Below, piece by piece: positions 4,388-15,742 of a stretch of 24,578 nucleotides of DNA. The position numbers were made by a program, and so were the translations under genes. Position 1 is the first letter of the stretch. Every line of letters starts with the position of its first letter. The DNA comes from a virus. Under the pieces are notes generated by a model. The model saw nothing but the letters and a program-made list of their open reading frames with translations. It made no database searches and had not been told where the DNA came from. The stretch spans positions 1 to 24,578 of the IMG/VR virus record IMGVR_UViG_3300009167_000031; one strand, given 5' to 3'.

Positions 4388-7300
4388 TTATGATACCAGC
4401 TTCCACTTACTCCCCCTCTTGACCCACATCTTCGCATACTCAAACGGATTGGCGTCTATCAGCGAGAACTTTCCTGTTATCGGTGCCGGGGTTACTGTAA
4501 CATACTTATCACCAGATGCCGTTGGGTCTATTGTGCTGAACAGACCAGATATCGGATCCGGCGTAACCACGATAACATTGATAAGCGCCCCAGCTGTAGG
4601 CAGCGAGAACAGCCCCGTGATAGGATCCGGTGTTACAGTCGCTGCTCTCGTTACTATTACCGTTGGGCTTAGAAGTGAGAATGTCCCAGACACTACGCCT
4701 GGGGACATGAGGGAAGCACCCTCGATCACAACAGCGCCATCGGCTCCTGCCCCGCCAGACTCGCCAAGACCTCCACCGCCAGCCCCACCTCCTGGGTTAT
4801 TACCATCGTCTCCGGAGTATCCGGCAGGCCCACCATCCCCTCCTGCCCCACCGTACGGAGAATCGCCGCCGTCCCCGCCATCGGTTGACGTGCCTACTTC
4901 CCCGCTGTACCCATTGACGAGAGTATCGCCTGCCCCGCTTGTCCCACCAGCCCCGCCATTCCCAGGGAAGTCTGCGTCGGCGTCTGATCCAGCGTCACCG
5001 CCGTCTGCCCTGGTATGATCAAACGATACGAACCACGATGCATCACCAGCGTAGCCTACGTGCAGCGAGTAGATGTATCCTGGAGTAACATTCATACTCC
5101 GGACTGCGTACTGCCCACCGCCGCCGCCACCTCCACCACCACCGCTGGCCCCTGCTCCACCATCTCCACCGCCACCCCAAAGCTTGACTGTGATGTAGTT
5201 AATGTTGGGAGGGCACGTCCAGGTGTAGTTACCGCCCAGATGCCAGCTGTTCTGGCCTACGTTGAACGACAGTAGGTTGAACTCACCCGTTATCTCGGAT
5301 ACCCCAAGCTCCGAATCCTGTTCGACATCGAATGTCTGAGGCAGGGAGAATGTTCCCGTGATCGGAGCGGGGACAATGGTTACGTTGTAGTCGATATAGA
5401 TCGTAGGTGTAGTGGCATTAAACGTCCCGGTTATGGGAGCCACAGATTGGTAGACAGATACATGGCCCGTGAACGAGCAGACCGAGAACGTGCCAGTAAT
5501 GGGGTCTGGGGTTACTGTCGCGCTGCCCCCGCTAACCCCTATGTCTATCGTAGGATCTATCAGGCTGAACGTACCTGCTATGGGAGCCAGGACGTTTGTA
5601 GTCGATACCTGTGCCGTGAAGCTCGAGAGAGAGAATAGTCCTGTAATAGGGCCAGGGGTAACAGATACGCTGCCCCCTGCCGATATGCCTGGCCCAAGCG
5701 CAGAGAACTCTCCGGTGATCGGAGACACGGATATGGTTATGCTTGTAGTGCCCGACACAGTCGGGGCAAGTAGCGAGAACTGCCCGGTGATCGGGTCAGG
5801 AGTAGCCGTTACTGTTCTTATCGCAGATACGGTTGGGCTAACCGCAGAGAACGTCCCTGTAATAGGGCTTACCGACACCGTAATGCTTGTTGTCCCGCTT
5901 ACGGTAGGAGAAGGTAGGCTGAACTGACCATCGATGCTACCAACAGATATGGACGCAGATCCACCTGCAGATATCCCAGGACTAAGGGCAGAGAATGTAC
6001 CTGTTATAACGCCTGCCGATACCGTTATATTTGATGCCGACGATACCGTAGGGCTGGCCAGCGAGAACAGGCCAGTGATCGGACTAGGAGATACTAGGGC
6101 CGCCGCCTTCGTTGTAGCGTCAGCTATACTGAACACCCCAGTTATCGGGGCTGGGGTTACCAGAGCGTTAGCTTTTACGGCCGGTGCATACTGTGAGAAT
6201 GCGCCAGTTATCGGCTCGACGATGACTACCGCTGATGTTGCAGTCAGAATACTTGGAGCTATAGGGGTAAACAGACCCGTTATGGCCTGGAGGACAATAA
6301 GACACCCTGTCTTTACAGCATTGGCGATAGCTTCAAACGTGCCAGTAATAGGATCCGGAGTGACCGTTACGCTTAGTACCTGCCCTGCTGTTGGAGTAAC
6401 GGCCTCAAATGTACCAGTGACCGGGGCTAGAACCTGGGTCGTTGTTATCTGCGGTGTGAACGACGATACGGTGAATGTACCATCAATAGGATCGGGGGTC
6501 CTGGTTACACTTGTCCCGCCAATAGATATGGATGGGCTGATTGCAGAGAACTCTCCAGCCAATGGCTCGGGAACATAAGTCTGATATTGGATAACCGTAG
6601 GGTTGTTCCATACGGTAAACTGGCCTGTGACCGGAGCTGGCGTTACCGTTACATTTGAAGTGGTTGTTACCGTAGGAGCAAGTGCCGCAAATGTTCCTGT
6701 GATCGGATCAGGAGTCCTGGTTACATCTGGCGATACTGTCCCGTAGGCCACCTCCATCATCAGGTTGAGCCAATACGGGTCAGGAGCAGCATCGCTACTC
6801 ATGCCGATGGTCACAGACTGGGCATTGACGGCGGCCTGGTCCCACCCGCCTGTGGGTTTTGTAACAGGAACGCTCTTATAGTAGGCAGAAGATTCTGAAT
6901 AGTCTGACTTTGTCGCAGGGCTACCCCAAACTGTATCCTCGACGGCATCCTCGTTTGTGGTAACACAAACACCCCTATTTGCCGACGTTCCTGCGGAGTA
7001 ATATGCCAGGATAACCTGGACTCCATGGATTGTTGTTTGAGATGTATCTGCAAACTTTACCTGGACATAGGTAGCGTCATTGTCGTCTGCGTCTATCTCA
7101 GTCTGTGCTACACGATACGTTGTAGTGCTTAGAGGGACGCTATTGAGTTGGTCGTGAGCATGGACTGATGCGCTTATCGCCGTGGCGCTGGCATTGACAA
7201 GGTAGTTGTGGGGGTTGGCAAGTGACGAGTCCTCGTCAGGAGACAGCCCCTCTACAGCACCAGCCCCGATGGGGTAGTCAGCGGTAGCATTCGTGAAGAT

Positions 7301-7828
7301 ACAATCGTCAATAAACTGATTGACCGTAACGGCGCTTACGTTTCCGAGCTGTATGTTCGTAGAATATGCCGCTGCCGCAGCATAAGAAACCTGAGTCTGC
7401 GCTACCCCGTCGATTTGCCAGTCAATCGTCCTCGGGTTGGCAGAGCTGTCGGCACAAAAGTCTACACGATACCATTGGCCAGTAGTGCAGGCTGGCCCAG
7501 TAACGGCCCCGCTTCCGGCCCAGGACATCTCAAAGTTTCCAGCAGACGTTCTCTGAAGCTGTAGGCCACTAGTAGATGAGTAAAAGATAATCTGGTTTGA
7601 TGTAGATGTTGTGGACCAATATACATAGAAACGGCCAGTTACATAGTAGGAGTTAATCGACTTTGTAACATAGGCGCTTGCTGACGTTGTATTTGACTGA
7701 AGCGCATACGTCCCGGTTCTCTTCGTGGTTGACTGAACCGTGGGGCTTCCGGTAATGGCAAAGTATAGTCCACCCCCCTGGGCAGACATCACCCCATGCT
7801 CAAACCCTGTCAGCCACAGAACAGCCAT
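4388..7828 (-). CDS. Giant modular tail fibre/adhesin: lectin-like head, 25 short beta repeats, polyglycine domain
   Basis: This protein has 1146 residues. The ATG at 7828 lies 5 bases after the previous stop and has no strong SD, so translation is probably coupled. Residues 1-about 185 form a LamG/concanavalin-like domain (RTIDWQIDG motif). Residues about 185-365 form a second beta domain. Both are paralogous to most of the 9918-11087 protein. Twenty-one repeats with core PITGTF occupy residues 375-850 at 22-26-residue spacing. A Gly-rich domain follows at 866-1037, introduced by a WTCPP segment. Four more repeats lie at 1045-1121, and the end is VKRGSKWKLVS, a C-terminal signature often seen in phage fibres. 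The protein is almost certainly a virion surface adhesin. Its receptor is unknown. The tandem repeats probably form an extended beta fibre that positions the Gly-rich and lectin-like modules. Confidence 0.75.
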   Translation of the reverse strand: MAVLWLTGFEHGVMSAQGGGLYFAITGSPTVQSTTKRTGTYALQSNTTSASAYVTKSINSYYVTGRFYVYWSTTSTSNQIIFYSSTSGLQLQRTSAGNFEMSWAGSGAVTGPACTTGQWYRVDFCADSSANPRTIDWQIDGVAQTQVSYAAAAAYSTNIQLGNVSAVTVNQFIDDCIFTNATADYPIGAGAVEGLSPDEDSSLANPHNYLVNASATAISASVHAHDQLNSVPLSTTTYRVAQTEIDADDNDATYVQVKFADTSQTTIHGVQVILAYYSAGTSANRGVCVTTNEDAVEDTVWGSPATKSDYSESSAYYKSVPVTKPTGGWDQAAVNAQSVTIGMSSDAAPDPYWLNLMMEVAYGTVSPDVTRTPDPITGTFAALAPTVTTTSNVTVTPAPVTGQFTVWNNPTVIQYQTYVPEPLAGEFSAISPSISIGGTSVTRTPDPIDGTFTVSSFTPQITTTQVLAPVTGTFEAVTPTAGQVLSVTVTPDPITGTFEAIANAVKTGCLIVLQAITGLFTPIAPSILTATSAVVIVEPITGAFSQYAPAVKANALVTPAPITGVFSIADATTKAAALVSPSPITGLFSLASPTVSSASNITVSAGVITGTFSALSPGISAGGSASISVGSIDGQFSLPSPTVSGTTSITVSVSPITGTFSAVSPTVSAIRTVTATPDPITGQFSLLAPTVSGTTSITISVSPITGEFSALGPGISAGGSVSVTPGPITGLFSLSSFTAQVSTTNVLAPIAGTFSLIDPTIDIGVSGGSATVTPDPITGTFSVCSFTGHVSVYQSVAPITGTFNATTPTIYIDYNVTIVPAPITGTFSLPQTFDVEQDSELGVSEITGEFNLLSFNVGQNSWHLGGNYTWTCPPNINYITVKLWGGGGDGGAGASGGGGGGGGGGQYAVRSMNVTPGYIYSLHVGYAGDASWFVSFDHTRADGGDAGSDADADFPGNGGAGGTSGAGDTLVNGYSGEVGTSTDGGDGGDSPYGGAGGDGGPAGYSGDDGNNPGGGAGGGGLGESGGAGADGAVVIEGASLMSPGVVSGTFSLLSPTVIVTRAATVTPDPITGLFSLPTAGALINVIVVTPDPISGLFSTIDPTASGDKYVTVTPAPITGKFSLIDANPFEYAKMWVKRGSKWKLVS
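4466..4696 (-). repeat. Second repeat block, 4 copies of the same beta unit after the Gly-rich domain
   Basis: Residues 1045-1121 of the giant fibre carry four more copies (cores VVSGTF, PITGLF, PISGLF, PITGKF). The Gly-rich domain therefore interrupts what would otherwise be one continuous array of 25, which suggests it was inserted between repeats. Confidence 0.8.
5279..6712 (-). repeat. Tandem protein-coding repeat, 21 copies of a ~24-residue beta unit (PITGTF core)
   Basis: Within the giant fibre gene, residues 373-850 repeat a unit of 22-26 residues, most often 24 (about 72 bases). The unit reads approximately T-P-D-P-I-T-G-T-F-S-L-x-x-P-T-V followed by 6-9 variable residues rich in Ser, Thr and Val. 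The Gly is kept in every copy and the aromatic Phe in every copy. The flanking Pro-Ile-Thr varies (PVTG, PLAG, PIDG, SIDG, EITG). DNA copies are diverged, so this is an old array with a younger sub-expansion in its middle. Confidence 0.85.
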
Positions 7829-7833
7829 CTACA

Positions 7834-8163
7834 TTACCACGTATAGTTACCGCTTTTAGCGCCACAGTTGTATGGCGGCCACAGGACCAGAACTTCCCTG
7901 TGGTCTGCGTCATTACATACAGCGAATGGATACCTCGTTCCGCTTGGTGAAATAAGCATCCTGCCAATCACCTGGTCGCCATGGTCACAGCGAGCGTTCT
8001 TAAAGAAGGCGTTGTTCTCAGCAGTAGTTGGGGCGGCGTGAGTAAATCCAAGTTCTTGCAGGAGTCGAACAAGGGTCAACAGGTCTGCAGTTACAAACGA
8101 CGTAGCCTGCATCTCTGGCGGGGGCCAGGATGGGGCCGTTGCAGGAGGCCAGTTAGTAGGCAT
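7834..8163 (-). CDS. Small phage protein, unknown function
   Basis: This protein has 109 residues. The ATG at 8163 overlaps the preceding stop as TAATG. The N-terminus is Pro/Trp-rich (NWPPATAPSWPPPEM). A helix follows at about 24-40 (TADLLTLVRLLQELGF). The C-terminal half looks like a small beta domain with three cysteines (ARCDHGDQVIG, FAVCNDADHREVLVLWPPYN) ending in NYTW. I do not recognise the family. Sandwiched between two fibre genes, it may be a fibre chaperone or a minor fibre component, but this is a guess from position. Confidence 0.5.
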   Translation of the reverse strand: MPTNWPPATAPSWPPPEMQATSFVTADLLTLVRLLQELGFTHAAPTTAENNAFFKNARCDHGDQVIGRMLISPSGTRYPFAVCNDADHREVLVLWPPYNCGAKSGNYTW

Positions 8164-9326
8164 TACCAGTTCCCCGCTATCTTCACGGATTGGTGCGGGC
8201 CTACACCTGTCACCCCGCCTCCTGCCGTATAGAAAATCGTCATGAATGGAAGCGTAGACCCGACATCGTAAGTCGTAATCCCGTTTTCGATTCCGTTTGT
8301 TATCCCGCTATCCCCAACAAGAACAATTCTGATATGAGCGCCGCTTGATAGCCCGCCATATGTATTGACAAGTTGTTGCACAAGACTAGTCACGGTAAGT
8401 GCGTTATATGAATCGACTAGCCAGTTATACCCTGTCCAATGAAGGGCGCCCGTCCCCTCCTCTGTTGATGGATACGTTACTGTATTACCAGATGATGCCC
8501 ACGTCGGTCTATCTGCTCCTTCTGTCGTTTGCGGCGCATCATTATCATCAACTACGTATGCCCAAAAATCTGATACCTCTTCATTAGATAATCCATAGAG
8601 GTTAGCGTAGGCTGCAGTAATCGTAGAGCCAGACGGTATCTCTTCATCTAGAGTAAAACGGATGTCGGATATATCGTAGGTGTTATTCCATTTCCCAAAC
8701 CAGATTACGTTTCCTGCGCCGCTGTGGAGAAAAGAACCAGAGTCATAATAAAACTGAACATCATCTCCGCTTGCGGCAACATACCCATAGACTCCATGTC
8801 CAAGGTCGCCACCCTCGAAGTCGTCAAGTCTGTTCGCCGTAGAATAAAAGTTTATCCCTGCCGACCCAGATTCTATGGATGTCTCGTCCGTCAAATGTGT
8901 GAACGGTATCGAATCATCATAAACGACGATGGTTATATTCGGGGAAGTCCCCATCACCTCGATCCGCACTATGGAATTGGTAGCGACTGGCGATGGCCCA
9001 TTATTAAGAGCGTTCTGAGAGTTATTAACCCACTCCCCAAGCTCCCAAGTCGTTTCGGTTATTGAAATATAGTAGTTATCCAGCGACGAACCCGTATCCC
9101 TGGCCCTGACGTTGACTCCGCAGAACTCGCCCGCCCCGCCAAGCGTCGTGATTTTCGCCTGTGAATACTGGTCAGCTCCGAACGTATCGGCGTTCCAGAA
9201 AGCGAAGGCATCACCACCGCCACCCTTGGCAACATCCGTATCCCTCGTAATCGTTCCAAGTTGGGCGGTCCAGCTTGCGCTGAGAGAACCAGTCCCTGCG
9301 AAATCGTATGTCGCTGGAAGGGCCAT
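8163..9326 (-). CDS. Two-domain tail fibre/adsorption protein (LamG-like plus DNRLRE-like beta sandwich)
   Basis: This protein has 387 residues. The ATG at 9326 overlaps the preceding stop (TAATG) and has GAGG 5 bases upstream. Residues 1-about 175 look like a concanavalin/LamG-type jelly roll (for example NSIVRIEVMGTSPNITIVVY and SAGINFYSTANRLDDFEG). Residues about 180-375 resemble a secreted beta-sandwich of the DNRLRE/TSP type: ISDIRFTLDEEIPSGSTI, then AYANLYGL, a central Trp-rich part and SLVQQLVNTYGG. It ends in KIAGNW. No catalytic residues are evident. A glycan-binding surface fibre is the most likely role. The domain names rest on pattern recognition. Confidence 0.6.
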   Translation of the reverse strand: MALPATYDFAGTGSLSASWTAQLGTITRDTDVAKGGGGDAFAFWNADTFGADQYSQAKITTLGGAGEFCGVNVRARDTGSSLDNYYISITETTWELGEWVNNSQNALNNGPSPVATNSIVRIEVMGTSPNITIVVYDDSIPFTHLTDETSIESGSAGINFYSTANRLDDFEGGDLGHGVYGYVAASGDDVQFYYDSGSFLHSGAGNVIWFGKWNNTYDISDIRFTLDEEIPSGSTITAAYANLYGLSNEEVSDFWAYVVDDNDAPQTTEGADRPTWASSGNTVTYPSTEEGTGALHWTGYNWLVDSYNALTVTSLVQQLVNTYGGLSSGAHIRIVLVGDSGITNGIENGITTYDVGSTLPFMTIFYTAGGGVTGVGPHQSVKIAGNW

Positions 9327-9916
9327 TAGAACCTCGCCCCCATCAAGGAGAACGGCGGGAACTTCACCGCCAGGGTTCTCAGGGCTTCCCTGATTGTCAT
9401 CGTTCCTGTGATGTCGGACGCATCAATCTTCATGCTCTCGACGGCCTGGATGAGGAGCTGCCTTTTCTGGACTGGTATCTGCGAAACCGTGGCATCCAAG
9501 CCAATCCCCGACAGAAGCCCCGTCCCTCCCAATCCAGCGTATCGGCTGGCGATGGCGAAGAACCCCCTGATGACCCTGATGATAGCCTTATACGTCAGGC
9601 TCGTCGTGACCCAATGGGCGGGGAGATTCGCCGCTTCGAGAATCCCCTGCAGGGTAGTCACATCTGCCGCTGATATGTTGGCGGTCAGAACGGCAGGAAA
9701 AGAGAACACATCCGACTGTGCTGAGATGTCGGTGTGCTGCGCCGCACTTGCGACAGCCGCAACGAGAATAACATCGTATTCCCCGTAGCTCTTGGCTTGC
9801 CAGTTGATTGTCTCGCATGATGGCAGAGTCGTCGGATTCCCGAACCATCCAAGATATTTCGGGCCGAACTTGTTCCTGTCGGCGGCCTTCGCCTTGGGGA
9901 CGATGTAGATATTCAC
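9326..9916 (-). CDS. Phage protein in the fibre cluster, unknown function
   Basis: This protein has 196 residues and a GTG start at 9916. The start lies one base after the preceding TAA, so translation is probably coupled. A weak AGGGA lies about 10 bases upstream. The N-terminus (MNIYIVPKAKAADRNKFG) is followed by Trp/Tyr-containing segments and a mixed alpha/beta middle. A helical part spans about 85-170 (for example YKAIIRVIRGFFAIASRYAG). The C-terminus ends FSLMGARF. I see no membrane helix of convincing length and no catalytic motif. Its conserved place between two fibre genes suggests a virion or fibre-assembly protein. Confidence 0.5.
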   Translation of the reverse strand: MNIYIVPKAKAADRNKFGPKYLGWFGNPTTLPSCETINWQAKSYGEYDVILVAAVASAAQHTDISAQSDVFSFPAVLTANISAADVTTLQGILEAANLPAHWVTTSLTYKAIIRVIRGFFAIASRYAGLGGTGLLSGIGLDATVSQIPVQKRQLLIQAVESMKIDASDITGTMTIREALRTLAVKFPPFSLMGARF

Positions 9917-9917
9917 G

Positions 9918-11087
9918 TTACCATGTCCCTATCATCGTGGTGCTGACGTAGGCCCCTACGGGCAAGGCTTCCGATTGGGCTGCGACCTCTATGATCAGAG
10001 CATTCCACCTAGGCGGGGAATCAGCGTCCGATGAATACCCGATCCTGGCCTTTAGTGCGTTTACCTGCGCTGCCGTCCACCCACCAGAAGGAACAGTTAC
10101 CATGGCCCCTTTGTACTGAAGAACCGTGCCCTCAGAGGAGTGATCGCCGCTGAACACAGTCGTGGACTGCGAGTCGGCGTCGAAGATATAGGCCTTCCCA
10201 TTGTTCGTGCTCCACCCCGAAGAGTTCAGTTGCATCAGAGCCCGCGCCCCGAATATCGTCCCGCCGATGGAAGGGTTATTGAACTGTACTTCTACGTATT
10301 TGGCAGCGTCAGTGGCGTTCTGCTGGATGTAATCAGTCCCCTCGGTCCCAGACCAGGGGTTTTCGTTGAGCTTATCGTAGGCGTAGACCGTTGTTCCGTT
10401 GATTGGATCCCCGGCACTGTTCTCCAGGTATGTATCGGCGTTGTCGTGTGTTCCATCAGCGTTTGGCCTGATCCCAACAACGACATGTTCGCCTATGGGG
10501 TAGTCACCTGAAGTGTTGGATATGATGAGGTCGTCGTAATAAGCTTCCAGGTTATATGTGGCTGAGTACGTAAGCGTAGGCCTGACGTATGTCGAGGTCC
10601 CCGTAGCGATGCCCGTCTTTTGAGGCTGGGCGTTCCCGTTGAGTTGCCAATCAAGTGTGCCGTTCGTAACGTCATATTTGATATCGATCCTAACCCATTG
10701 GTCCCCAGCATATTCTTCAGTAGAGTATGTAGATCCACCCTCGCTGTCGTGATATATCCGGAATAGGTTCGTTGATGGATAGTAAAAGAGCCCAGGGCTC
10801 TGCCCGCCGTTGCTGTAGATATCGAACACGAACGAAGATTCCTGATTCGTTTCTGGCCAATAAAAATAGAAGCTGACCACCTGCATGGTCTGTGACCCTG
10901 TTGGTATCCAAGTGTACCCGTTGGTAGCAACACCCGCTGCGGTGGCAAGTTTCAGGGCATACGAGCCTGTCCTCTTGATAGAAGACTGAGTCGTTGCCAG
11001 CGACACATATTCGGCTATGCCAAGGCCATATTGCGACAGCGTTGGAAGTCCGTGCTCGTATCCTGTTATATACGTCGGTGTAGCCAT
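9918..11087 (-). CDS. Lectin-like tail fibre protein, paralogue of the giant fibre's head
   Basis: This protein has 389 residues. The ATG at 11087 has AGGAG at 6-base spacing, fused to the previous TAG stop. Residues 1-about 195 form a LamG/concanavalin-like domain (SIKRTGSYAL, VRIDIKYDVTNGTLDWQLNG). Residues about 195-370 form a second beta domain (DYPIGEHVVVGIRPNADGTH, then VPSGGWTAAQVNALKARIG). The whole length aligns by eye with residues 1-365 of the 4388-7828 protein, sharing TG(Y/F)EHG, KRTG(S/T)YAL, DYPIG and GGWxxAxVNA. It ends with STTMIGTW. It is very probably a host-recognition fibre or a carbohydrate-binding accessory of one. The ligand is unknown. Confidence 0.65.
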   Translation of the reverse strand: MATPTYITGYEHGLPTLSQYGLGIAEYVSLATTQSSIKRTGSYALKLATAAGVATNGYTWIPTGSQTMQVVSFYFYWPETNQESSFVFDIYSNGGQSPGLFYYPSTNLFRIYHDSEGGSTYSTEEYAGDQWVRIDIKYDVTNGTLDWQLNGNAQPQKTGIATGTSTYVRPTLTYSATYNLEAYYDDLIISNTSGDYPIGEHVVVGIRPNADGTHDNADTYLENSAGDPINGTTVYAYDKLNENPWSGTEGTDYIQQNATDAAKYVEVQFNNPSIGGTIFGARALMQLNSSGWSTNNGKAYIFDADSQSTTVFSGDHSSEGTVLQYKGAMVTVPSGGWTAAQVNALKARIGYSSDADSPPRWNALIIEVAAQSEALPVGAYVSTTMIGTW

Positions 11088-12824: not shown

Positions 12825-14318
12825 TTACCCCTGGTACTCGAGAGCGCCAATGTCTGGCGTTGAATCATTCCTGTCCCTACCCTGGTTATCGTCGTCGATC
12901 CCGGTTACGGGGGTTCCACCAGCCAGGAACGGGGAGCTTGCTGTAGGCTCAAAGTATGCGTAGGTCAGTGCCCTCGGGACGGTTGATCCAGACTTGGCCA
13001 GCAAAGGCGCTCCAATGATATCCCCAGTCCCGCCGAATCCTACAGGAGGGGTCCTGTGCCAATTGTTATGGTCAAATGTTACCCCAGACGTAACGGATCT
13101 CGCCAGCTGGACATCGGTATCATCCTGCCAAATGACATTATTGCAGAATCTTCCACCAGTGGCGGCCCCGCCGTAGCACATCAAGTTAGCGGATTCAACG
13201 ATACGGTCAAAAACCTGAGTGAAAGTATTGAAGGCGACGAGAGTTCCATTCCAATTCGTCGTCCCTACATATATGCTCCTGTCCCCGCCCCATGTGATGT
13301 TGTTGCGAACAATGTTGTCAGATGACTGCGGGGTGTGACCTTCGTCCCCTAGCCCTATACAATTCTGGGACGTGCAGTACTGCTGCGACTGGTTCCCCGG
13401 CGTGTAGTAAGAGAGGTTTCTCTGCGCCGTAGCATACTGAGTGTCGGAGAGGTAGAGGTTAACGGTGTAGTTATTGCAGATAATGTTGTCTTCGATAGTA
13501 TTATAATAGCTCTCGAACGTCGAGATCCCTTCTCCCCAGTTGCCAAGAGATAGGCAGTTTCTTACTGTTCCGTGTCCGGTGTTTCCAAAGTCACCGTGGC
13601 GACACAGAGAAATGCCCCAACCCCAACTACCCGCAACCCCATATTCGTTGCTTACGGCATTATAGTAAGCAGTGCAATTCTCGATGACATTGTAATCAGC
13701 GAACCCGCCTATGCCTCCGCCGTAGTTGTGGTGTGCGTAAATGTTGTCGGCCGAAGCGTAATCACCAACCAGGATTACGGCGAGGTTCCCGCCGCGACGG
13801 ATCTCAAAGTTCCTGACGGTGTGGTATTGGCCATAGATGTGGAACATCCCGCTGCCGCCACCGCCAATCGTGTAGTTGTTCCCGTCGATGATCGGAGACT
13901 CACCTGGATAGTTGGTGATAACGACAGGGTTGGCGGCCGTGCCGTGATTAAGGTAGCCCCAGGTGGACTGTTCCTGATACGTGCCTGATCTAATATATAC
14001 GGCTATAGGGTAGCTCCCTGCCGTGTAGTGTGCTGCGGCATACTGGAGCGTTTGCCATGGACCGTGGGCCCCGTCGTAGTATGGAGCCTTCCCGTCATAG
14101 GCATTGTTGCCGTAGGTCTGGCTGACGTAGTACTTCTGGCCACTGAATGACTGGTATTCGTAGGCCCCTATGTCAGGCCGACCTGCGCCAATGGAAATAA
14201 TCGGCGTCGGCTGGCTGAATCTAGCGCTTATAAAACCAACAGGGATCGTTATGCTGGTTACGCTATCTGGCCACTTTGGCTTAACGCGCACATGGCGCTT
14301 GCACGAAAACAGGGCCAT
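12825..14318 (-). CDS. Right-handed parallel beta-helix protein with unusual N-terminal extension
   Basis: This protein has 497 residues. The ATG at 14318 is 4 bases from the preceding stop, with only a weak GATAGG-like SD. Residues 57-110 are the typical opening of a beta-helix domain (YYVSQTYGNNAYDGKAP, WQTLQYAA). Coils run through about 110-450 (VRNFEIRRGGN, VIENCTAYYNAVSNEYG, IEDNIICNNYTVNLY, IVRNNITWGG). The C-terminus has the classic closing motif STPDIGALEYQG. Residues 1-56 carry a second copy of this closing motif (RPDIGAYEYQ, 48-56), which is normally found only at C-termini. This suggests the extension came from the end of another beta-helix gene. A surface glycan-binding or depolymerising role is likely. 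The substrate is unknown. Confidence 0.65.
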   Translation of the reverse strand: MALFSCKRHVRVKPKWPDSVTSITIPVGFISARFSQPTPIISIGAGRPDIGAYEYQSFSGQKYYVSQTYGNNAYDGKAPYYDGAHGPWQTLQYAAAHYTAGSYPIAVYIRSGTYQEQSTWGYLNHGTAANPVVITNYPGESPIIDGNNYTIGGGGSGMFHIYGQYHTVRNFEIRRGGNLAVILVGDYASADNIYAHHNYGGGIGGFADYNVIENCTAYYNAVSNEYGVAGSWGWGISLCRHGDFGNTGHGTVRNCLSLGNWGEGISTFESYYNTIEDNIICNNYTVNLYLSDTQYATAQRNLSYYTPGNQSQQYCTSQNCIGLGDEGHTPQSSDNIVRNNITWGGDRSIYVGTTNWNGTLVAFNTFTQVFDRIVESANLMCYGGAATGGRFCNNVIWQDDTDVQLARSVTSGVTFDHNNWHRTPPVGFGGTGDIIGAPLLAKSGSTVPRALTYAYFEPTASSPFLAGGTPVTGIDDDNQGRDRNDSTPDIGALEYQG

Positions 14319-14322
14319 CCTA

Positions 14323-15567
14323 TCACCCGCATCTGAATAGGTATTCTACCCTCCCAGGAGTAGCCGCACCGGCCGTTTTCGTGTCACCGATCTTCTTTAT
14401 CCAGATGGAATCGATTAGATCAGGTTCTCCAAACCGTTCTGTCACCGCTTCCTGCACCGTATGCCACTGCCAGTCGTGGCCGCACAAGAGCTTCTTGGCC
14501 TTCGGCATCCATGCCTCGATGTCTTCCTTGACGCTCTTGTAGTCGTGTGCACCGTCGATAAACACCATGTCTACCGACTTGTCCTCGAACAGGCTGGCCG
14601 CCTCGAGACTGGTCATCTCCATTGTCCTGAGGTTCTCAAAATGGCCCACGTTGGCCAGGAACTGAGGCAGGATCTCAGTCGTTGTGGCCTCTACGTGCGG
14701 CCCGGCCAGCTCTTCACTGCTGCCCTTCCATGTATCTACGGCATACACAGAACCCTTGCACCCGGTCAGGAGGGCGTGGGTGGACCGCCCCTTCCATGAC
14801 CCTACCTCTACGACGTTGTCCATCTCCTTGGCTGTATCGTGAAGCCAGTTAAGCTCGCTCTTGGTCATCCACCCTTCGATCTGGTTATCGTAGGTCTCCC
14901 GATCTTTCTTCCAGCCCTGGAACTTCATCTCCGTGACAAAGTTCTCCCTCTTGTACGCGATCTTCCCGACATGGCCAAGCGGAATGGTGGGGTCAGCCCA
15001 GATCTTGTAGCCCAGGGACTTAGCCCTACGGCAGAATGCCAGGTCTTCGCCTTCCTCTACGCCATTAGGAGAGTACCCGAAGCCAAACGGTGTCCCAAGA
15101 TCGCTCGTGACAGGCCTGGTGAACTGTTCCAGGACGGCCCTCTTGATGAGCAGGAACCCCGTCCCGATCCCATCCACCTCGAACGGCTTCTCAAGCTCGT
15201 CGAACTCAGCGTAGCACCTGAACTGGCCGTTCTCGTTGAGCTTGTAGATCGTGGGCGTATAGAACTCGCCCTTGTGGTAATAGACGCCGCCTACAATGTC
15301 TAGGTCTCGCTCCACCAGCCTGGTGATGCCGTAGACAGGGAACTGGATGTCTGAGTCGATCCACATCAAATGGGTAGCCTGCGTACCGTTTAGGTACTGT
15401 TGACAGACAGAGTTCCTCCCGGCAGAGATGACCGAGCATTCGTTGGACAGGACGTTGTGGTTGATCTGGTGCTCGTATAAATGCCTTCTCGCTGCAAGGA
15501 GCGAGTGGAAACATTCCGGCTCCAGCTGTCCCCGTTGGACTGGTAGACCGATGACGATAGACGGCAT
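14323..15567 (-). CDS. Glycosyltransferase (GT-A-like) fused to class I SAM methyltransferase
   Basis: This protein has 414 residues. I chose the ATG at 15567, which has GGAGG at 4-base spacing. A TTG at 15585 would lengthen it but has no SD. Residues 1-about 225 look like a GT-A-fold nucleotide-sugar transferase: start IVIGLPVQRG, metal-binding DSD at 71-73 (THLMWIDSDIQFP), G134-x-G-x-L, an ED pair at 173-174 (EEGEDLAFCRRA) and GHVGK at 198-202. Residues about 240-385 look like a Methyltransf_24-type SAM enzyme: VVEVGSWKGRST (252-263), acidic D278 in YAVDTW, and FIDGAHDYKSVKEDIEAW (336-353). Enzymes of this two-domain form probably add and then methylate a sugar. The acceptor (phage virion protein, host surface, or other) cannot be told from sequence. 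Its position between tail and spike genes is compatible with virion modification. Confidence 0.75.
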   Translation of the reverse strand: MPSIVIGLPVQRGQLEPECFHSLLAARRHLYEHQINHNVLSNECSVISAGRNSVCQQYLNGTQATHLMWIDSDIQFPVYGITRLVERDLDIVGGVYYHKGEFYTPTIYKLNENGQFRCYAEFDELEKPFEVDGIGTGFLLIKRAVLEQFTRPVTSDLGTPFGFGYSPNGVEEGEDLAFCRRAKSLGYKIWADPTIPLGHVGKIAYKRENFVTEMKFQGWKKDRETYDNQIEGWMTKSELNWLHDTAKEMDNVVEVGSWKGRSTHALLTGCKGSVYAVDTWKGSSEELAGPHVEATTTEILPQFLANVGHFENLRTMEMTSLEAASLFEDKSVDMVFIDGAHDYKSVKEDIEAWMPKAKKLLCGHDWQWHTVQEAVTERFGEPDLIDSIWIKKIGDTKTAGAATPGRVEYLFRCG

Positions 15568-15571
15568 AAAA

Positions 15572-15576
15572 CCTCC
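15572..15576 (-). promoter_or_regulatory. Shine-Dalgarno sequence that fixes the glycosyltransferase start
   Basis: GGAGG (minus strand) is 4 bases before the ATG at 15567. An in-frame TTG at 15585 lies upstream of it and lacks its own ribosome-binding site, so the 414-residue reading is preferred. Confidence 0.75.
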
Positions 15577-15592
15577 GCTCAGCAACGAGCCG

Positions 15593-15742
15593 TTATTTAA
15601 GAGGGAAGAAGCAAGCCGAAATCGGTTCCGGATGAACCGTAACGCTTATGGAGACCGCCTTCTCCGTGGCTTCCGGCTTCTTCTCTCCCTCTTTCTCGTC
15701 GCTGCCCTTTGTATCGGTAGGCGGAATGTCGGGCTTTTCCAT
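15593..15742 (-). CDS. Short charged peptide (49 residues), hypothetical
   Basis: The ATG at 15742 is 2 bases after the upstream TAA, and the frame fills the gap before the glycosyltransferase gene. Residues 1-30 are rich in Lys, Glu, Pro and Asp (KGSDEKEGEKKPEATEK). Residues 31-49 look like two short strands (AVSISVTVHPEP, ISACFFPLK). There is no strong SD, so translation would depend on coupling. A longer reading of the same frame up to 15934 overlaps the upstream gene and is not supported. Real status is uncertain. Confidence 0.45.
   Translation of the reverse strand: MEKPDIPPTDTKGSDEKEGEKKPEATEKAVSISVTVHPEPISACFFPLK

What the first reader, a model, noticed from the sequence alone, without database searches (positions are those of the whole stretch)
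4388..7828. 1146-residue fibre with 25 short beta repeats split by a polyglycine domain
The repeat unit is only 22-26 residues with an almost invariant Gly and Phe (PITGTF core), occurring 21 times, then a 170-residue Gly-rich domain, then 4 more copies. I do not recognise this unit as a named fibre repeat. It may form an extended beta-rod whose length can change by repeat gain or loss, displaying a lectin-like head at one end and a glycine-rich receptor-binding module near the other.
Basis: partly seen in the sequence, partly recalled or inferred. Interest (0 to 1): 0.7.

Follow-up and report, generated by a model that had tools for sequence, protein, structure and literature searches.

The report
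Phage adhesin with swappable repeat stalk
An uncultured, apparently short-tailed bacterial virus encodes a long surface protein with a sugar-binding-type head, a stalk of 25 near-identical 24-residue units and a glycine-rich module; in related viruses the same head sits on quite different repeat stalks, so the stalk appears to be a replaceable spacer.

Summary
ORF 4388-7828 (minus strand, 1146 aa) carries 25 units, 21 before and 4 after a ~170-residue Gly-rich domain, with Gly and Phe invariant in 25/25. The ORF lies in the adhesin cassette of an apparently podovirus-like phage contig from IMG/VR. Residues 1-195 are predicted as a concanavalin-A-like jelly roll (Z about 17). The Gly-rich part is Pfam Gly_rich_2.

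The main new result is comparative. The ~365-residue head recurs in the same virus (9918-11087) and in other uncultured phages at 29-43% identity, but the sequence behind it differs in each case: SPSAS, EASQSQTSDA, SSKSAYLKG, LTNKALSG, SSASS. Only one relative (L084) carries a recognisable variant of this unit, in register.

I read the repeats as an exchangeable stalk. The units are old: codons are randomised while the protein consensus is kept, so recent copy-number change is not supported. A 4-unit monomer prediction was uninformative (pLDDT 50), so the beta-rod is unproven. No outside match to the unit was found in cultured phages, Pfam or PHROGs. New variant of a known kind; moderate interest.

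The parts
4388..7828 (-). 1146-aa adhesin/tail-fibre-like ORF
   Evidence: phrog tail families in its C-terminal part
6734..7828 (-). Head, residues 1-365: ConA-like jelly roll (1-195) plus a second, poorly predicted beta domain
   Evidence: AlphaFold model, VIA Z about 17 to ConA-like domains; paralogue and homologues
5234..6733 (-). Stalk, units 1-21 (residues 366-865)
4721..5233 (-). Glycine-rich domain, residues 866-1036 (59 Gly), Pfam PF21722 Gly_rich_2
   Evidence: 25.6 bits against cut-off 24.3
4445..4720 (-). Units 22-25 (residues 1037-1128)
4391..4444 (-). C-terminal basic closing segment, ending YAKMWVKRGSKWKLVS
9918..11087 (-). Paralogue of the head alone (389 aa), no stalk
   Evidence: 34% identity over residues 5-363, E 3.2e-38
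7834..8163 (-). 109-aa partner gene directly upstream of the adhesin; a 61% identical homologue sits directly upstream of the head gene in L055
14196..14255 (-). Single variant unit (SITIPVGFISARFSQPTPII) near the N-terminus of the beta-helix ORF 12825-14318
   Evidence: profile score 15.2 against 95% quantile 9.9 in 300 shuffled proteomes
15596..15646 (-). Possible partial unit (SVTVHPEPISACFFPLK) ending a small ORF
   Evidence: sequence inspection; too short for the profile test

Best explanation
This is a virion adhesin in the host-recognition cassette of an uncultured, apparently podovirus-like phage. It has a ConA-like N-terminal head module, then a long stalk built from 25 short beta-type units, with a known Gly-rich adhesin domain set between units 21 and 22. 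The stalk acts as a spacer that separates the head from the Gly-rich module by a fixed, selected distance. Units are held to a consensus by selection on the protein (probably packing around the invariant Gly and Phe), not by recent copying. Across viruses the same head is joined to unrelated short-repeat stalks, so stalk length and chemistry are exchanged while the head is kept. Shown: architecture, head homology, stalk replacement, age of the units. Inferred: presence on the virion, stalk shape, oligomeric state, which end faces the cell (I lean slightly to an N-terminal anchor with the Gly-rich part distal), and sugar binding.
For: Gene order is portal part, scaffold, major head protein (phrog_14242, E 1.2e-16), adaptor, nozzle-like protein (phrog_511/3287), then this cassette. 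A relative with a 55% identical head protein (L006/L008) keeps the flanking virion genes but has a wholly different fibre cassette. The head matches ConA-like domains with Z about 17. The same head (29-43% identity to this one in blastp alignments) precedes different stalks: L077 SP-rich, L079 22-mer, L080 14-mer, L057 19-mer, L058 SSASS, L084 22-mer. Only L084's stalk matches this unit: its four best scores fall on its four tandem units, spacing 22, 22, 24, shuffle p 0.002 for the best. Invariant Gly uses GGT/GGA/GGG/GGC 8/6/6/5, and adjacent units share codons barely above expectation (0.365 against 0.308). The Gly-rich domain passes its Pfam cut-off.
Against: No experimental virion evidence. 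Repeat model confidence is low (pLDDT 50), so a stalk shape is not demonstrated. The second half of the head is poorly predicted. Head relatives are mostly 29-43% identical, so stalk replacement is over long times and the recombination events themselves were not seen. Some relatives are cut by contig ends (L054, L055, L056).
Confidence: 0.62

Rival explanations
1. The units form a rigid, interlaced trimeric beta-rod, like the triple beta-spiral of adenovirus and some phage fibres, with the invariant Gly at a turn and the Phe in the core.
For: Regular 22-24 residue period with alternating hydrophobic/Thr-Val strands and an invariant Gly-x-Phe; predicted short strands at ITVSVS and TFSAV. Shaft peptides of triple beta-spirals do not fold in isolation (PMC8869412), which would fit the poor monomer model.
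Confidence: 0.35
2. The repeat region is a flexible, largely unstructured Thr/Ser/Pro-rich tether whose exact sequence matters little.
For: Relatives use SP-rich and SSASS low-complexity stalks at the same place; low pLDDT; Thr/Ser/Pro-rich composition.
Against: Gly and Phe invariant in 25/25 units with randomised codons means strong selection on specific positions, unexpected for a structureless tether.
Confidence: 0.25
3. The N-terminal head is the virion anchor shared by several appendages of the phage, and the Gly-rich domain near the C-terminus is the receptor-binding tip. (This concerns polarity and can hold together with the best explanation.)
For: Head shared with the stalkless paralogue in the same virus; conserved N-terminus with variable C-terminus is the usual anchor/tip pattern (established knowledge of tail fibres); Gly-rich domains form receptor-binding tips in gp38 of T2-type phages (PMC12892980).
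Against: ConA-like folds are typically carbohydrate binding; 110 residues including four units follow the Gly-rich domain, so it is not strictly terminal.
Confidence: 0.5
4. The units are themselves many weak ligand-binding sites giving avidity to a surface glycan, as proposed for tandem BACON domains of crAss-like phages.
For: Tandem repeats in tail-associated phage proteins have been proposed to bind hosts (PMC6949934).
Against: Units of 24 residues are small for an independent carbohydrate-binding domain; unrelated low-complexity sequences fill the same place in relatives.
Confidence: 0.1

Closest known systems
Concanavalin A-like lectin/glucanase domains (LamG, sialidase lectin domains, GH131, PL20)
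   Same: Predicted jelly roll of residues 1-195, Z 15-17
   Different: 8-17% identity; Pfam Laminin_G_3 reached only by one of ten homologues and weakly (E 0.017); an extra second domain (190-365) without a confident fold
Gly_rich_2 (PF21722) glycine-rich domain of phage proteins; by analogy the poly-glycine II sandwich of gp38 in S16/PP01
   Same: Whole-domain Pfam match above cut-off, 59 Gly in 171 residues
   Different: Set inside a repeat array, not a free tip protein; no sequence match to gp38 structures
Triple beta-spiral fibre shafts (adenovirus, some phages)
   Same: Short regular repeat with an invariant Gly and alternating hydrophobic pattern; long shaft next to globular parts
   Different: Unit of 22-24 residues with an invariant Phe; trimeric structure untested
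Tandem BACON domains in crAss-like phage tail proteins (PMC6949934)
   Same: Tandem repeats in tail-associated proteins of uncultured phages
   Different: Those are full domains of a named family; here 24-residue units of no named family

Membership tests
Concanavalin A-like lectin/glucanase superfamily | Jelly-roll beta sandwich | tested here: met
   Model residues 1-195 match ConA-like domains, best Z 17.2, rmsd 2.7 over 167 residues; part of the model has low pLDDT
Concanavalin A-like lectin/glucanase superfamily | Sequence-profile match to a named family above curated cut-off | tested here: not met
   No family for this head; 1 of 10 homologues hits Laminin_G_3 at E 0.017. I therefore claim the fold, not membership of a named family
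Concanavalin A-like lectin/glucanase superfamily | Carbohydrate binding | not testable with these tools
   needs a glycan array
Gly_rich_2 (PF21722) | Pfam profile match above gathering score | tested here: met
   25.6 bits against 24.3, profile 4-224 of 226
Poly-glycine II adhesin of gp38 type | Sequence relation to gp38 structures | tested here: inconclusive
   phmmer against PDB gave only Gly-linker and chance matches
Triple beta-spiral shaft | Interlaced trimer of beta strands | not testable with these tools
   no multimer prediction; monomer pLDDT 50
Phage tail fibre / adhesin (functional class) | Located in the adhesin cassette of a virion gene block | tested here: met
Phage tail fibre / adhesin (functional class) | Present in the virion and needed for adsorption | not testable with these tools
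   needs proteomics or an isolate
Any named repeat family (Pfam, PHROGs) | Profile match of the repeat region | tested here: not met
   Only a sub-threshold Synuclein match in Pfam (E 0.038, 14.7 bits against 23.3); in PHROGs the Gly-rich part drives the matches and the one repeat-only hit (phrog_34908, E 0.026) has no significant stretch

The most novel reading that the evidence does not exclude
The 24-residue ITGxF unit builds an undescribed trimeric beta-fibre, and it is one of several unrelated stalk types that uncultured phages exchange behind one conserved lectin-like head, making this head family a natural series for studying how adhesin reach and stiffness are tuned.
Probability: 0.25. 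Interest if true: 0.6.

Novelty: new variant of a known kind. Interest (0 to 1): 0.4.

Why it matters
Phage fibres are known to be modular, but usually the tip is exchanged and the shaft kept. Here a head of about 365 residues is kept while the repeat stalk behind it is replaced by at least six different short-repeat sequences. If the head is the binding part, these viruses tune spacing and flexibility independently of specificity. If the head is the anchor, the set shows a common docking module with exchangeable arms. Neither the head nor the repeat has a Pfam or PHROGs family covering it, so both would be useful annotation models.

Tried and rejected
Search of the unit in IMG/VR and GTDB by peptide patterns: 58 and 22 candidate stretches, none confirmed. 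A three-unit DNA pattern found only tape-measure-like proteins with helical VTGFFSFG repeats and one frame with stops, judged unrelated. A second pattern gave chance frames. tblastn in cultured phages: no match for the whole protein, the paralogue or two head homologues. The long repeat query may have been masked as low complexity; the shorter query gave only E about 4 hits, including Rhizobium phage tail fibres, and an antisense Mycobacterium prophage hit at E 0.01; both judged chance. Profile of units in 592 bacterial genomes: three hits, one lying antisense to a large gene (L091) and two in ordinary proteins, rejected. The repeat-structure model was too poor to compare with fold libraries. 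Copy number in near-identical viruses: contigs end at window position 9800 or later, before the gene. My recollection that similar TPxP..PTV repeats are common in actinophages was not confirmed, apart from L084. The Foldseek list contains many toxin binding domains; this reflects the common ConA fold only.

Full report
What is there. The ORF at 4388-7828 reads on the minus strand, 1146 codons from an ATG to a stop. It has 25 copies of a unit with consensus s-V-T-V-T-P-D-P-I-T-G-T-F-S-L-l-s-P-T-V-s. Twenty-one lie in residues 366-865 and four in 1037-1128, with a 171-residue Gly-rich stretch (59 Gly) between. The Gly and the Phe are invariant in all 25; spacing is 22-27, mostly 24. Shuffles exclude chance, and autocorrelation peaks at lags 24 and 22.

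Setting. The window is a 24,578-base virus record. From its right end, on the minus strand, come a portal-like C-terminus and a scaffold-like protein (both by position, inferred), the major head protein (phrog_14242), small head proteins, an adaptor-like protein, a nozzle-like protein (phrog_511 and 3287), then the adhesin cassette: a glycosyltransferase/methyltransferase fusion, two beta-helix ORFs, a head-only paralogue, a ConA-like-looking ORF (8163-9326, by inspection), a 109-aa partner and this ORF. Further ORFs of unknown function follow. No tail-tube or tape-measure gene was recognised in the window, so I read the virus as podovirus-like (inference). A relative with 55% identity in the major head protein (L006, L008) keeps the flanking genes but has a different fibre cassette: a 1043-aa spike-like protein, a collar-like protein and a glycosidase-like protein (names by inspection). 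The cassette is therefore the exchanged, probably host-recognition, part.

The head. Residues 1-365 are related to the ORF 9918-11087 in the same virus (34% identity) and to proteins in other IMG/VR contigs. AlphaFold on five aligned sequences gave block pLDDT of 58-89 for residues 41-180 and poor values elsewhere. The jelly roll matches ConA-like domains of sialidases, glucanases and polysaccharide lyases with Z 15-17. No Pfam or PHROGs family matches this head.

The key comparison. In relatives, the head is followed at the same place by different short-repeat sequences: L077 SP-rich, L079 22-residue EASQSQTSDA units, L080 14-residue SSKSAYLKG units, L057 19-residue LTNKALSG units, L058 SSASS, L084 22-residue TPTRIAAVAAVPxPTI units. 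L078 has no stalk, and L054 is cut by the contig end after one GTGSFVLSG-like segment. L089, in a genome drawn from the phylum of the Bifidobacterium genome G005, has a further unit of about 20 residues, ETATARPLTGHKTA. Of the relatives tested, only L084's stalk scores on a profile of the window's unit, and its four best scores fall on its four tandem units in register (shuffle p 0.002 for the best), lacking the Gly and Phe. So the repeat belongs to a broader TPxxI...PTI type in at least one other phage, a contig with tape-measure and tail-fibre genes, and the ITGxF form is special to this virus in everything searched.

Age of the repeats. Invariant Gly uses all four codons almost evenly (8/6/6/5). 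Adjacent units share the same codon for the same residue in 0.365 of cases, against 0.308 expected from codon use. Mean DNA identity between units is 0.45. The array is old and held by selection on the protein; there is no sign of recent gain or loss. No contig of the near-identical viruses reaches the gene, so copy number could not be compared.

Structure of the stalk. A four-unit model with six aligned rows from the protein itself gave pLDDT 50 and pTM 0.23, with short strands. This does not separate an obligate trimer from a disordered tether. Triple beta-spiral shaft peptides do not fold alone (PMC8869412), so the negative monomer result is weak evidence.

Gly-rich part. It passes the cut-off of PF21722 over nearly the whole profile. 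In T2-type phages a Gly-rich poly-glycine II tip carries the receptor loops (PMC12892980); by analogy this domain may be the distal binder. Relation to gp38 was not shown.

Interpretation. I favour a virion adhesin whose repeat array is a selected, exchangeable spacer between two possible binding modules. A single variant unit elsewhere in the cassette (14196-14255) suggests that the unit can also serve as a small connecting element; this is inference.

Limits. Searches of collections used short patterns and may miss divergent copies; heads compared are mostly 29-43% identical; there is no experimental evidence on the virion.

Noticed in passing
window 14196-14255: One variant copy of the unit (ISARF in place of ITGxF) near the N-terminus of the beta-helix ORF 12825-14318; significant against shuffles.
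   Followed up: partly
window 15596-15646: A small ORF ends in a partial unit (VTVHPEPISACFFPLK) directly before the glycosyltransferase/methyltransferase gene.
   Followed up: partly
window 14323-15585: Fusion of a glycosyltransferase-like domain (phrog_1574) and a Methyltransf_24 domain inside the adhesin cassette; a similar fusion precedes the head gene in L080, and a glycosyltransferase lies near it in L079.
   Followed up: partly
window 7834-8163 and L055:7664-7999: A 109-aa protein directly upstream of the adhesin is 61% identical between viruses whose heads are only 37% identical; possible assembly partner.
   Followed up: partly
window 8163-11087: Three neighbouring ORFs end in similar short C-termini (IGTW, IAGNW, GARF) that resemble half a unit.
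   Followed up: no
L078:1903-3108: A stalkless head protein begins with a signal-peptide-like hydrophobic segment (MKRLKALGFLAVILLLLTQLYA), unusual for a virion protein.
   Followed up: no
L062, L063, L065-L070: Tape-measure-like proteins with tandem helical AWxxVTGFFSFG units whose number differs between related contigs.
   Followed up: no
L084:9384-10604: A second, diverged head domain in the same phage contig, so paired head paralogues are not special to the window.
   Followed up: no
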